DNA of 64,000 nucleotides from Oscillospiraceae bacterium (lineage in GTDB: Bacteria; Bacillota; Clostridia; Saccharofermentanales; Saccharofermentanaceae): contig SVIZ01000007.1 of the NCBI GenBank assembly GCA_015069205.1, positions 62,001-126,000 of the forward strand, written 5' to 3'. Below are positions 3,481-7,520 of this stretch, piece by piece (position 1 is the first letter of the stretch; each line of letters opens with the position of its first letter). A program made the translations under genes and the position numbers. Under the pieces are notes generated by a model. It had not been told where the DNA came from. It saw only the letters and a list, made by a program, of their open reading frames with translations, and ran no database searches.

Positions 3481-3732
3481 ATGAATAATGAGATTGCCGA
3501 GAAGATCAAGGGGATGCTTGTAGAAAGACTCAGGATCCCTGAAGACGAACTCGAGTACGATTCAGAGCTTTTCGGTGAGGACATCGGACTTGATTCCATC
3601 GATTCCATCGAGATCATCGTAGGTATCGAGAACCTTTTCGGAGTTGATATCTCCGGCGCAGGTGCCACCAAAGAGGACTTCCGTTCCATCGAGACACTTA
3701 CTGCATTTGTAGAAGCACATAAAGAGGACTGA
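3481..3732 (+). CDS. Acyl carrier protein
   Basis: 83 aa, acidic, phosphopantetheine-type site GLDSIDSIEI. Strong SD AGGAGG upstream. Confidence 0.92.
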   Translation: MNNEIAEKIKGMLVERLRIPEDELEYDSELFGEDIGLDSIDSIEIIVGIENLFGVDISGAGATKEDFRSIETLTAFVEAHKED

Positions 3733-3738
3733 TAAATA

Positions 3739-6003
3739 ATGCCAATGAACGAAAAGCGTTGCGTCATCACGGGCCTCGGCCTTGTGAGCGCAATCGGACA
3801 CAATACCGAAGAATGCTTTGAAGCAGCACTTAAAGGTGTTTCCGGCATTACGGACGTTAAGAGCTTTGACACAGCTGACTGCTACTCACACAAGGGAGCA
3901 GAGGTAGATCTTTCAAATGAGGAACTCGCTAACGGCAGATACGACAGGACCACTGCCCTCGGAATAAAGGCGGCAGGCGAGGCCATTAAGGATGCCGGGA
4001 TCGACATGGATTCCGGAGATACATCAGATATCGGCGTCATTTTGGGAAGCTGTATAGCCGGCGCTGCCTGTGTTGAAAAATACTACAGACAGAAGAGCGA
4101 CGGCAAAAAGGGCGATATCGATGATCTGAAACAGATGCCCGCTTCAGTAATCGCAGGAAACGTAGCCGATTACTACAATGCCGGCGGAATTACCGCAAAC
4201 ATCGTTAATGCATGTGCGGCAGGTACTTTGAGTATCGCCCTTGCGATCGACCTCATCAGGGGCGGCAAAGGCGAGATCTTCCTTGCCGGCGGCTGCGATT
4301 CATTCTCATCACTTGCTTATTCGGGTTTCCACGCTTTGAGGGCACTGGATGCAACAGAGTGCTCTCCGTTCAATCACAGCGAAGGTATTACATTAGGCGA
4401 AGGCGCAGGTGTCCTCGTAGTCGAGAGCTACGAGCATGCCGTTAAGCGCGGCGCAAAAATATACTGCGACGTACTCGGCTCAGGCGTAAGCTCCGATGCT
4501 TATCACATAACTGCCCCGAGACCGGACGGCGAAGGACAGATGAGCGTTATCACGCGCGCAGTCAAGAATTCAGGACTTAAGTTCACCGATATCGACTATG
4601 TCAATGCACACGGTACGGGTACGGCAAAGAACGACGAGTCCGAGTTCCTTTCATTGAAGACATGCTTTGCGGAGAATGACCATATCTCCGTAAGCTCAAC
4701 AAAGTCCATGACAGGACACTGCCTTGGCGCAGCCGGCGCCATTGAGGCAGTTATGACCGTAAAGGCATTGGTAGAGGGCAAACTCCCTCCCACGACCGGA
4801 TACACGGAAGATGACCTCAAGGTTCTCGCCGAAAAGTCCGGAAATATTGATTTCATCGCCAACACACCCAGAGAAAGGGACATCAAGTATGCGATGTCCA
4901 ATTCTTTCGCGTTCGGCGGAAACAACGCAAGCATCGTATTTGCAAAAGATCCCAACGTTCTTAATCTTTCATGTCCGAAGCAGGAACTTTACGTTACCGG
5001 TATCGGCATGGTTAACGGCGAATACGACGAAGCAGCAAAAAGCTATGTTGCAAATCTCGACACCGATACTTTTAAGGCATACGGTGTTAAGTCAGCATTC
5101 TTAAGAAAGCTCGACAGACTCTCGCAGCTTCAGCTCTTGAGCGGTGTCAGGGCTTTGGAAGATGCCGGAATTACGGTTAATGACGATAACGCCGGCATCA
5201 TCGGTATATGCATCGGAACAAACGAAGGACCGATGACCGAGATCGCCAATTTCCAGAAGGGAATCATCAAGGACGGCATCGACAAGGGTTCTGCATTTGC
5301 ATTCCCGAATACCGTATACAACGCAGCAGGCGGATATCTCAGCATCTTCACCGGCATCAAGGGTTATAACGCGACCATCGCAAACGGATTCCAGTCAGGT
5401 CTCCAGAGCGTTTGCGCCGCGATCGGCGCGATCATGTTCGGTTATGAGAACATCATGCTCGCATCAGGAACCGACGAATGCACCGACATCGACCACGAGA
5501 TCTATTCCGATCTCGGCAAGATCGGCTCAGGCAATTTCACACTCGGTGAAGGTTCCGTTACATGCGTTATCGAAAAGGATTCCAGCGCAACTGAAAGAGG
5601 CGCTAAGAGATATGCGAAGATCGCAGGTTTCTCTTCCGCAAGAGACACATCGGGTGACAGATCCGATAACCTGAGATTATCTGAAGTCTCACTTACGAAG
5701 GTCATCAACAACGTTCTCGAAGAGGGCGGCATGAAGCCTGAAGACGTCAAGTGTATCTATGGCTTCGGCAACGGCATTGAAGAAGTTGACAGCTTCGAGA
5801 TGGGTGTTTACAAGAAGATCTTCGGCGATAACATCGAAGTCAAGCTCGTTAAGAAAGACTTCGGTGAAGCAAGGGCAGCTTCTTCCTCGCTGCAGTTTGC
5901 AAAACTTGCTCAGGATATTTATGAGGGCAAGGCCGAAAACGGCATCGCAGTCTCATTTGGAACAAGCGCTCTTTATTCGGCAGTATTACTCACAAAGGCA
6001 TAA
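3739..6003 (+). CDS. Two-domain ketosynthase: intact KS (N-terminal half) fused to degenerate KS/chain-length-factor-like half
   Basis: N half has NACAAGT (C159), NAHGTGT (H291), KSMTGH (K322/H327). C half repeats the thiolase-fold landmarks but has F551, F676 and E710 at the aligned catalytic positions. Confidence 0.9.
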   Translation: MPMNEKRCVITGLGLVSAIGHNTEECFEAALKGVSGITDVKSFDTADCYSHKGAEVDLSNEELANGRYDRTTALGIKAAGEAIKDAGIDMDSGDTSDIGVILGSCIAGAACVEKYYRQKSDGKKGDIDDLKQMPASVIAGNVADYYNAGGITANIVNACAAGTLSIALAIDLIRGGKGEIFLAGGCDSFSSLAYSGFHALRALDATECSPFNHSEGITLGEGAGVLVVESYEHAVKRGAKIYCDVLGSGVSSDAYHITAPRPDGEGQMSVITRAVKNSGLKFTDIDYVNAHGTGTAKNDESEFLSLKTCFAENDHISVSSTKSMTGHCLGAAGAIEAVMTVKALVEGKLPPTTGYTEDDLKVLAEKSGNIDFIANTPRERDIKYAMSNSFAFGGNNASIVFAKDPNVLNLSCPKQELYVTGIGMVNGEYDEAAKSYVANLDTDTFKAYGVKSAFLRKLDRLSQLQLLSGVRALEDAGITVNDDNAGIIGICIGTNEGPMTEIANFQKGIIKDGIDKGSAFAFPNTVYNAAGGYLSIFTGIKGYNATIANGFQSGLQSVCAAIGAIMFGYENIMLASGTDECTDIDHEIYSDLGKIGSGNFTLGEGSVTCVIEKDSSATERGAKRYAKIAGFSSARDTSGDRSDNLRLSEVSLTKVINNVLEEGGMKPEDVKCIYGFGNGIEEVDSFEMGVYKKIFGDNIEVKLVKKDFGEARAASSSLQFAKLAQDIYEGKAENGIAVSFGTSALYSAVLLTKA

Positions 6004-6025
6004 TTTCTAAAAGGAAGGCAGCATT

Positions 6026-6760
6026 ATGGGCAAGACAGCAGTAGTTACAGGCGGCTCAAGAGGAATAGGCAAGGCGATCGCTTTAAAGCTCGCTCAGGAA
6101 GGCTACGACATAGCCCTCAACTATGCTAACAACGATGCTGCCGCTGAAGCTGCCAAAGAAGAGATCACTGCCACAGGTGTCCGCTGCGAGATCTATAAGG
6201 CAGACACATCCGACATGATGCAGGTCAAGGCGATGTTCAAGGAGATCAAGAAGAGCTTCGAGACGATCGATGTCCTGGTTAACAATGCAGGTGTTGTTGA
6301 TGACGCATACCTTCTCATGATCAGACAGGAGTCTCTCGAAAGAAGCCTTGCGATCAACATCAAGGGTTATATCAACTGCGCACAGGCAGCAAGCCTTAAG
6401 ATGTGCTCACAGAAGAGCGGAAAGATCATCAACGTATCTTCCGTAAGTTCCATTCTCGCAGTTCCGGGTCAGAGCGTTTACAGTGCTACAAAGGGCGCGG
6501 TCAACTCAATGACGCAGACAATGGCAAAAGAACTCGCGCCTTACGGCATCCAGGTTAATGCGGTAGCTCCGGGCTTTATCGGCACCGACATGATCAAGTC
6601 GATTCCGGGCGATCTTGCCGAGAAGTATCTGGACAGCGTTCCCATGAAGCGTTTCGGAACGGCTGAAGACGTTGCCGATTGTGTGGCAAGCCTTCTTTCT
6701 GACGCCTTCAATTACATGACCGGCCAGGTTATCGTTCTCGACGGAGGTTTGAGCCTCTGA
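6026..6760 (+). CDS. 3-oxoacyl-ACP reductase / SDR ketoreductase (first copy)
   Basis: TGGSRGIGKAIA, NNAG, S-YSATK catalytic motif, C-terminal MTGQVIVLDGGLSL. Confidence 0.9.
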   Translation: MGKTAVVTGGSRGIGKAIALKLAQEGYDIALNYANNDAAAEAAKEEITATGVRCEIYKADTSDMMQVKAMFKEIKKSFETIDVLVNNAGVVDDAYLLMIRQESLERSLAINIKGYINCAQAASLKMCSQKSGKIINVSSVSSILAVPGQSVYSATKGAVNSMTQTMAKELAPYGIQVNAVAPGFIGTDMIKSIPGDLAEKYLDSVPMKRFGTAEDVADCVASLLSDAFNYMTGQVIVLDGGLSL

Positions 6761-6782
6761 TTTTCCGGGAGGCCATATATAA

Positions 6783-7520
6783 ATGAAAGTACTTATTCTT
6801 AACGGCAGTCCCAAGATCGAGAGAAGCAACACGCTCCATGTAACGGATGCGTTCGTTTCAGGTTTTCCGGAAGGCACGGAAGTAAAAAGAATAGATATCT
6901 ATGCCAAGGACATTAAGCCCTGCAGAGGCTGCTTTGCATGCTGGGCTTCTCCCGACGGCACATGCGCTATAAAAGATGACATGGCAGAGATCATCGCTGC
7001 CATTAAAGAAGCTGACGTCATCATCGAGAGCTTTCCTCTGTATTTTTACGGTATGCCTTCACAGCTCAAGGCGGTTACCGACAGGTGCCTCGCGCTCGCT
7101 GAACCTTACATGGGCACCAGGTCTGACGACGGCCAGACATTTAACAAGATGAGAGATCCTTCAATCTTTGAAAAGAAATTCGTAATCATCAGTTCCTGCG
7201 GCTATGTTGAACTTGAGCCCGTTTATCCGGCACTCCTGGCACAGTACGATCTTATCTGCGGCGGCAGGGACAGATATACTGCAATCCTCTGCCCGATGGG
7301 CGAGGTCTTCATGACCGGAAAAGCTAAAAGACAGATCAGAGTCTACATGGACGATCTTAAGAAGGCTGGTGCGGAATACTGCGCCAACGGCTTTAAGCTC
7401 GATCCCGAGACGATCAGGAAACTTCAGATCCCGCTCTTGTCACCTGAAGGATTTGCTACGCTTACAAGCTCCCACCTGAATGAGGGCGGCTGGGCTGCAA
7501 GCAGGTTCGAAAAGCAGTAA
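6783..7520 (+). CDS. NAD(P)H-dependent FMN reductase / flavodoxin-fold oxidoreductase
   Basis: LILNGSPKIERSNT flavodoxin-like start, CRGCFACW...GTCAIKDDM, FPLYFYGMPSQLKAVTDR. Confidence 0.85.
   Translation: MKVLILNGSPKIERSNTLHVTDAFVSGFPEGTEVKRIDIYAKDIKPCRGCFACWASPDGTCAIKDDMAEIIAAIKEADVIIESFPLYFYGMPSQLKAVTDRCLALAEPYMGTRSDDGQTFNKMRDPSIFEKKFVIISSCGYVELEPVYPALLAQYDLICGGRDRYTAILCPMGEVFMTGKAKRQIRVYMDDLKKAGAEYCANGFKLDPETIRKLQIPLLSPEGFATLTSSHLNEGGWAASRFEKQ

What the first reader, a model, noticed from the sequence alone, without database searches (positions are those of the whole stretch)
3481..7520. Candidate uncharacterised acyl/polyketide cassette: ACP, KS-CLF, ketoreductase, FMN reductase beside the fab operon
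Sequence: four tightly spaced co-directional genes supply a carrier, a condensing/chain-length unit, a second FabG-like KR and a flavin reductase. There is no cassette-specific AT, dehydratase or PPTase in the window. FabD and FabZ lie directly downstream in the fab operon. Inference: the cassette may borrow FabD/FabZ to make a specialised lipid, aryl-polyene-like or aromatic product, with the flavoprotein as tailoring enzyme.
Basis: inference. Interest (0 to 1): 0.82.

Follow-up and report, generated by a model that had tools for sequence, protein, structure and literature searches.

The report
Four-gene cassette with fused ketosynthase pair
Next to its ordinary fatty-acid genes, this rumen bacterium carries a compact, conserved four-gene kit that probably builds an unusual unsaturated (polyene-like) fatty chain on its own carrier protein while borrowing steps from ordinary fatty-acid synthesis; its product is unknown but testable.

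Summary
ACP, a single 754-aa KS–CLF fusion, a FabG-like KR and a flavodoxin-fold oxidoreductase are co-directional, with gaps of 6, 22 and 22 nt. The KS half keeps its catalytic residues; the CLF half has lost them.

The block is a real unit. In Saccharofermentans-like genomes it sits between a conserved gene pair and fabH. Genomes without it run straight from that pair to fabH, including one (G070) nested inside the carrier clade. The fab operon has its own promoter with FabT-type boxes, so the cassette is probably a separate transcription unit.

New here: elsewhere in Oscillospirales the same cassette stands away from fab genes, as PlsC acyltransferase–ACP–KS-CLF–KR–DH–(PPTase)–flavoprotein. 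The fab-adjacent form is one clade lacking DH, PPTase and PlsC. The aryl-polyene and aromatic readings are weakened (no aromatic ammonia-lyase, no cyclase seen).

Best reading: a highly reducing type II PKS-like system making a polyene-type or specialised acyl chain, with a single-chain KS–CLF resembling the PfaC didomain. Product and flavoprotein role are untested.

The parts
3481..3732 (+). Cassette acyl carrier protein (83 aa), phosphopantetheine site DSIDS
   Evidence: PF00550 39.5 bits; below the TIGR00517 housekeeping cut-off (48.6 vs 70.45); DSIDS invariant in 79 of 79 aligned ACPs. The housekeeping AcpP (DSLD) is elsewhere, between pgsA and rnc on contig C16.
3739..6003 (+). Single-chain KS-CLF (754 aa): active FabF-type KS (about residues 1-403) fused to a catalytically dead, shortened CLF-like half (about 417-754)
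   Evidence: KS C159/H291/K322/H327 invariant in 79 of 79; CLF positions are F/I/V/N/S/Y/A for Cys, mostly F for the first His, E/D for the second His (alignments). AF2 model pLDDT 85, pTM 0.90; best full-length Foldseek hit PfaC KS-CLF didomain 6riw, TMq 0.84.
6026..6760 (+). Second FabG-like ketoreductase (KR)
   Evidence: 3oxo_ACP_reduc 257 bits, below its equivalog cut-off 297.75 that the housekeeping FabG at 10578 passes with 333.6; N86/Y152/K156 invariant in 80 of 80.
6783..7520 (+). Flavodoxin-fold FMN oxidoreductase with a CX2CX2CX7C cysteine motif
   Evidence: PF02525/PF03358; motif in 75 of 75 homologues; AF2 pLDDT 86, core matches AzoR/NQO-type quinone reductases at TM about 0.5-0.56; profile's best PDB sequence hit is flavone ene-reductase FLR, 7d38.
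7575..7632 (+). Promoter-like site (7592-7620) with two FabT-type boxes TTTGACAATCAAA (7575-7587, 7620-7632) in front of fabH; marks the downstream edge of the cassette
   Evidence: 4 matches against 0.44 expected in the window; at least one box at the same place in all 25 loci that reach fabH, none found upstream of the ACP.
1885..3430 (+). Upstream asparaginase-like (ORF 1743-2801) and unassigned C39-like 210-aa (2798-3430) gene pair; possible co-transcription (50-bp gap to the ACP) but not part of the unit
   Evidence: Gap to ACP 36-55 bp in all loci measured; the pair persists next to fabH in cassette-less genomes.
7702..13071 (+). Housekeeping fab operon fabH-fabK-fabD-fabG-fabF-fabZ; presumed donor of FabD and FabZ
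   Evidence: holds the only FabD and the only FabA/Z-family dehydratase of the genome.

Best explanation
The block is a discrete, probably separately transcribed, highly reducing type II PKS-like cassette. AcpS loads the cassette ACP and FabD supplies malonyl-ACP. The single-chain KS-CLF elongates iteratively: the KS half does the chemistry and the dead half acts as chain-length factor in an intramolecular pseudo-dimer. The KR reduces each beta-ketone. Dehydration is done by the neighbouring FabZ, because this lineage has lost the cassette's own DH. With no dedicated enoyl reductase of a known type, the likely product is a polyene-type (polyunsaturated) acyl chain of fixed length. In relatives a PlsC-type acyltransferase would move it onto a lipid head group; here another acyltransferase must do so. 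The flavoprotein performs a redox tailoring step or acts as a trans enoyl reductase. Shown by computation: gene content, catalytic residues, KS-CLF architecture, unit behaviour, absence of DH/PPTase/PlsC and single-copy FabD/FabZ/AcpS. Inferred: chemistry, use of FabZ, product class, lipid attachment, flavoprotein role.
For: Catalytic residues intact in KS, KR and ACP over about 80 loci, CLF triad lost. Full-length model matches the PfaC KS-CLF didomain. Exact presence/absence of the four genes between the C39-like gene and fabH. Fab-gene tree: carriers form one clade with one nested loss. Standalone relatives carry PlsC, DH and often PPTase. KS-CLF tree: fab-adjacent form is one clade whose nearest neighbour is a DH-bearing standalone locus. 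One FabD, one FabZ, one AcpS in the genome. Separate promoter-like site with FabT-type boxes for fab.
Against: No product or expression data. The genome has one MaoC-like hydratase on another contig that could replace FabZ. Without a DH the product could stay hydroxylated. The FMN protein may be a true enoyl reductase, giving a saturated chain. The lack of FabT-type boxes upstream is only indirect evidence for separate regulation. The KS half scores best against FabF models, so a modified fatty-acid function is not excluded.
Confidence: 0.55

Rival explanations
1. Dedicated fatty-acid synthase branch: the flavoprotein is a trans enoyl reductase, and the cassette makes a saturated or partly reduced acyl chain of special length for a particular membrane lipid.
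For: Flavoprotein kept in nearly every locus; its profile's best PDB sequence match is an ene-reductase, 7d38 (PMC7862272); standalone relatives begin with a PlsC-type acyltransferase whose best models include acyl-ACP--phospholipid O-acyltransferase.
Against: Fold search matches quinone/azoreductases on the core only; the fab operon already has FabK; a dead CLF half is typical of PKS rather than FAS condensing enzymes (established knowledge).
Confidence: 0.22
2. Aryl-polyene-like pigment pathway with an aromatic starter.
For: Much the same enzyme set in standalone relatives (KS-CLF, KR, FabZ-type DH, ACP, PPTase, acyltransferase).
Against: No aromatic ammonia-lyase in the genome; no starter ligase or exporter recognised in the block. 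The aryl-polyene pigments known from cellulolytic Clostridia use a type I PKS (PMC12144888; PMC11839114).
Confidence: 0.08
3. Aromatic polyketide (classical actinorhodin-like type II PKS).
For: KS, CLF and ACP make up a minimal PKS.
Against: No cyclase/aromatase recognised in the block; KR and the relatives' DH are FAS-like; KS half closer to FabF than to actinorhodin KS.
Confidence: 0.04
4. Redundant housekeeping fatty-acid genes (second FabF/FabG/ACP) with no special product.
For: Adjacency to the fab operon; KS scores highest on FabF models.
Against: CLF half conserved but catalytically dead; distinct ACP; standalone copies away from fab genes with own DH and PPTase; no FabT-type boxes upstream.
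Confidence: 0.11

Closest known systems
PfaC KS-CLF didomain of bacterial PUFA synthases (PDB 6riw)
   Same: KS and CLF in one chain; full-length structural match TMq 0.84
   Different: PfaC belongs to a multidomain megasynthase system; only 18% identity in the structural alignment; here ACP, KR and DH are separate small proteins and there is no Pfa-type ACP array or AT domain
Highly reducing type II PKS (ishigamide KS-CLF, PDB 6kxd; aryl polyenes)
   Same: Discrete KS/CLF, ACP, KR and (in relatives) FabZ-type DH that can give polyenes
   Different: KS and CLF fused; DH absent in this lineage; FMN protein with a 4-Cys motif added; no aromatic starter genes found
Housekeeping FabF/FabG/AcpP
   Same: KS half and KR are closest in sequence to FabF/FabG models
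   Different: Dead second half, separate ACP, no FabT-type boxes upstream, sporadic distribution
Cispentacin AmcB-AmcH system (PMC10698177)
   Same: Type II PKS-like and recruits a FAS enzyme (FabI) from the cell; cassette ACP's second-best NCBIfam model is AmcB
   Different: ACP 47.2 bits against a cut-off of 80; no AmcH-type starter ligase in the block
Celluxanthenes/flavoaffinins of cellulolytic Clostridia
   Same: Polyene pigments from anaerobic plant-fibre degraders
   Different: Made by a type I PKS with an aryl starter (PMC12144888, PMC11839114)

Membership tests
Type II PKS (KS-CLF type) | KS with Cys-His-His triad | tested here: met
   C159, H291, H327 invariant in 79 of 79
Type II PKS (KS-CLF type) | KS-like partner lacking the active-site Cys | tested here: met
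   Position 551 is F/I/V/N/S/Y/A, never C, in 79 sequences; both His replaced
Type II PKS (KS-CLF type) | Discrete ACP with phosphopantetheine Ser | tested here: met
   DSIDS invariant in 79 of 79
Type II PKS (KS-CLF type) | KS and CLF as separate subunits (usual, not strictly defining) | tested here: not met
   One 754-aa ORF; separate ORFs only in G074 and L163, which may be assembly errors
PUFA synthase (Pfa) | KS-CLF didomain fold in one chain | tested here: met
   6riw TMq 0.84
PUFA synthase (Pfa) | Megasynthase with tandem ACPs and AT domain | tested here: not met
   Separate small proteins, one ACP, no AT in the block
Aryl polyene pathway | Aromatic ammonia-lyase for the starter | tested here: not met
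   PF00221 absent from the genome
Aryl polyene pathway | Own DH, PPTase and acyltransferase beside KS-CLF | tested here: not met
   Absent in the window and in all 35 fab-adjacent loci; DH present in 42 of 42 standalone loci where it could be seen
Cispentacin type | AmcB/AmcF at NCBIfam cut-off | tested here: not met
   ACP 47.2 vs 80; KS-CLF 254.4 vs 325
Housekeeping FAS-II | FabF/FabG/ACP equivalog cut-offs (TIGR03150, TIGR01830, TIGR00517) | tested here: not met
   455 vs 493.75, 257 vs 297.75, 48.6 vs 70.45; the neighbouring FabF and FabG pass theirs. The KS-CLF does pass the broader FabF subfamily model NF005589
Iron-sulfur flavoprotein (Isf) family | Compact cysteine motif CX2CX2CX5-7C | tested here: met
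   CX2CX2CX7C in 75 of 75; motif as cited in PMC3164229
Iron-sulfur flavoprotein (Isf) family | Structural relation to Isf and a bound 4Fe-4S cluster | tested here: inconclusive
   The 50 best fold hits are AzoR/NQO-type flavoproteins and similar, no Isf among them; the cluster is not testable here
Highly reducing type II PKS | Product is a polyene acyl chain | not testable with these tools
   Needs enzymology or metabolomics

The most novel reading that the evidence does not exclude
A new class of anaerobic lipid/polyene pathway: a discrete-enzyme counterpart of PUFA synthase built round a single-chain KS-CLF, with an iron-sulfur flavoprotein as redox partner and a PlsC-type acyltransferase placing the chain directly on membrane lipids. 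One lineage has simplified it by docking it beside the fab operon and using FabZ.
Probability: 0.22. Interest if true: 0.75.

Novelty: new variant of a known kind. Interest (0 to 1): 0.58.

Why it matters
Few polyketides are known from strict anaerobes, and I found no description of this cassette in the open-licence library searched. It recurs in rumen and gut Oscillospirales (264 loci confirmed in one genome collection), including the isolate Ruminococcus bromii YE282. If it makes polyene or specialised lipids it would be a widespread product of fibre-degrading gut communities. The loss of DH and PPTase beside the fab operon would also be a natural example of a secondary pathway becoming dependent on primary fatty-acid enzymes, and a ready-made single-chain KS-CLF would be useful for structure and engineering.

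Tried and rejected
1) Asparaginase-like and C39-like upstream genes as cassette members: rejected, they stay beside fabH when the cassette is absent. 2) Cassette ACP as the housekeeping ACP (none lies in the fab operon): rejected, AcpP is at pgsA-acpP-rnc. 3) CLF as a KSQ-type decarboxylase ('GFQSG'): rejected, the Gln is one residue after the Cys position, which is F/I/V/N/S/Y/A. 4) Yellow affinity substance of cellulolytic Clostridia: rejected, celluxanthene/flavoaffinin PKSs are type I. 5) Housekeeping PlsC-family proteins as the lost acyltransferase: only about 21-37% partial matches, no orthologue. 6) Paper searches for fused KS-CLF, type II PKS in Firmicutes and Saccharofermentans polyketides gave no description of this cassette. 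7) PDB 9s5h, the closest solved KS by sequence, could not be traced to a paper. 8) Even sampling of the class: 3 of 392 genomes, all own genus, so the cassette is sporadic.
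Full report
OBSERVATION. The window is contig C8:62001-126000 of a 2.69 Mb, 98.6% complete genome. Close homologues of its KS-CLF come from Saccharofermentans MAGs, 'Butyrivibrio sp. AE2032' and Ruminococcaceae isolates YAD3003 and AB4001. ORFs at 3481-3732, 3739-6003, 6026-6760 and 6783-7520 encode ACP, KS-CLF, KR and a flavodoxin-fold protein (FLAV). Gaps are 6, 22 and 22 nt. The housekeeping operon fabH-fabK-fabD-fabG-fabF-fabZ follows at 7702-13071.

THE KS-CLF. The N-terminal half is a FabF-type KS. Its Cys159, His291, Lys322 and His327 are invariant in 79 homologues. 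In the C-terminal half the Cys position is F/I/V/N/S/Y/A, the first His is almost always Phe and the second is Glu or Asp, while neighbouring residues such as Q552 are invariant. That pattern is a conserved but catalytically dead partner, as in chain-length factors. AlphaFold gives pLDDT 85 and pTM 0.90 for the whole chain. Among the listed solved structures only the PfaC KS-CLF didomain (6riw) matches the full length (TMq 0.84, 18% identity). By sequence the KS half is closest to FabF proteins and to PDB 9s5h chain B, so the likeness to PfaC is one of architecture, not shown to be descent.

IT IS A UNIT. In 26 neighbourhoods of the genus the order is exonuclease-like gene (XthA, opposite strand), asparaginase-like, C39-like, ACP, KS-CLF, KR, FLAV and then, where the contig reaches, fabH, fabK, fabD and so on (in a few assemblies an ORF is split or missing). 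In relatives without the KS-CLF the C39-like gene is followed directly by fabH, so exactly these four genes come and go. A tree of FabK+FabD+FabG+FabF puts all carriers in one clade (100/100) with one non-carrier, G070, nested inside, which is best read as a loss (junction). The C39-ACP gap is constant (36-55 bp), but the FLAV-fabH gap varies from 97 to 2874 bp and sometimes holds other genes.

SEPARATE CONTROL FROM FAB. A promoter-like site at 7592-7620 before fabH is flanked by two copies of TTTGACAATCAAA (0.44 matches expected in the whole window). At least one such box lies between FLAV and fabH in all 25 loci that reach fabH and none was found upstream of the ACP. The boxes resemble FabT sites (identification from general knowledge). 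Promoter-like sites as such are no more frequent than chance; the boxes are. Cassette and fab operon are therefore probably separate transcription units.

THE CASSETTE ELSEWHERE. A scan of one genome per species with the CLF half found 264 relatives; the best 80 were fetched. Thirty-five are of the fab-adjacent type (C39-like gene upstream; fabH downstream where near enough). Forty-five are not near fabH and read PlsC acyltransferase, ACP, KS-CLF, KR, FabZ-like DH, PPTase (in 27), FLAV (families confirmed). DH is present in all 42 standalone loci long enough to show it and in none of the 35 fab-adjacent ones. The standalone set includes Ruminococcus bromii YE282 and Lachnoclostridium sp. MSJ-17. 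In the KS-CLF tree the fab-adjacent form is one side of a supported branch (SH-aLRT 96), and its nearest neighbour is a DH-bearing standalone locus (midpoint rooting), so loss of DH and PlsC in the fab-adjacent ancestor is the simplest reading.

BORROWING. This genome has one malonyl transferase (FabD), one FabA/Z-family dehydratase (FabZ in the window) and one PPTase (AcpS). It has no orthologue of the cassette PlsC. So ACP priming, malonyl supply and, if dehydration happens, most likely the dehydration depend on housekeeping enzymes. The one alternative dehydratase is a lone MaoC-like gene on contig C13.

FLAVOPROTEIN. All 75 homologues have CX2CX2CX7C, the compact motif described for iron-sulfur flavoproteins (CX2CX2CX5-7C, PMC3164229). 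The AlphaFold model matches azoreductase/quinone-reductase flavodoxin folds on its core only, and the best PDB sequence hit of the profile is the flavone ene-reductase FLR (PMC7862272). Its reaction is open: double-bond reduction, quinone-like reduction or electron supply.

MECHANISM AND PRODUCT. Shown: parts, active-site states, unit behaviour and single-copy FAS partners. Inferred: iterative elongation with chain length set by the dead half, ketoreduction by the cassette KR, dehydration by FabZ, hence a polyene-type acyl chain, with redox tailoring by the FMN protein and lipid attachment as suggested by PlsC in relatives. The main rival is a dedicated fatty-acid branch with the FMN protein as enoyl reductase. 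A true aryl polyene is unlikely without an ammonia-lyase, and an aromatic product is unlikely without cyclases.

NOVELTY. Type II KS-CLF systems are known in many phyla, including Firmicutes (PMC10132072), and single-chain KS-CLF is known in PfaC. A discrete-enzyme cassette round a single-chain KS-CLF, with a PlsC head and an Isf-motif flavoprotein, matched no specialised family model at its cut-off and no paper in the searches made. Most subscription papers could not be searched, so an existing description cannot be ruled out. I file it as a new variant of a known kind.

LIMITS. Only the best 80 of 264 loci were examined. Most genomes are MAGs. Presence counts use E-value thresholds. The class-wide sample found it only in the own genus, so prevalence outside the taxa seen here is unknown.

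Noticed in passing
2798-3430: 210-aa protein with an NSGCG...HW pattern (C39-like by eye only), no Pfam, NCBIfam or significant PDB match, overlapping by 4 bp an asparaginase-like gene; the pair sits upstream of the fab operon with or without the cassette in the genus.
   Followed up: partly
60505-60517: A third FabT-like palindromic box (TTTGATTATCAAA) just upstream of a 150-aa HTH-type regulator ORF at 60534-60986.
   Followed up: no
L005 (contig C19:158875-162072): MarR-like gene followed by a second small ACP and a diacylglycerol-kinase-like gene; a candidate FabT with its own ACP.
   Followed up: no
L067:6692-10327 (contig C24): Adenylate-forming ligase fused to an ACP (661 aa), a double PlsC acyltransferase (464 aa) and a further ACP: a separate uncharacterised acyl-lipid locus that might serve as off-loading partner.
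   Followed up: partly
G074:C73:16278-18511; L163: KS and CLF halves occur as two ORFs, near the expected domain boundary; natural split or assembly error.
   Followed up: no
G017:C122:24402-26663 and C143:3839-6100: Two copies of the KS-CLF in one assembly (both about 86% identical to the window's); duplication or mixed bin.
   Followed up: no
L055, L058, L060, L061, L065 (between FLAV and fabH): AraC-type regulator plus a secreted lipoprotein-like gene inserted between FLAV and fabH in one subclade.
   Followed up: no
L172:5969-6841 and similar loci: Patatin-like phospholipase gene directly after the cassette in several Ruminococcus-type loci, a further hint at a lipid connection.
   Followed up: no
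L130:8750-9325: In Ruminococcus bromii YE282 the flavoprotein ORF is short (191 aa, near the contig end), possibly disrupted.
   Followed up: no
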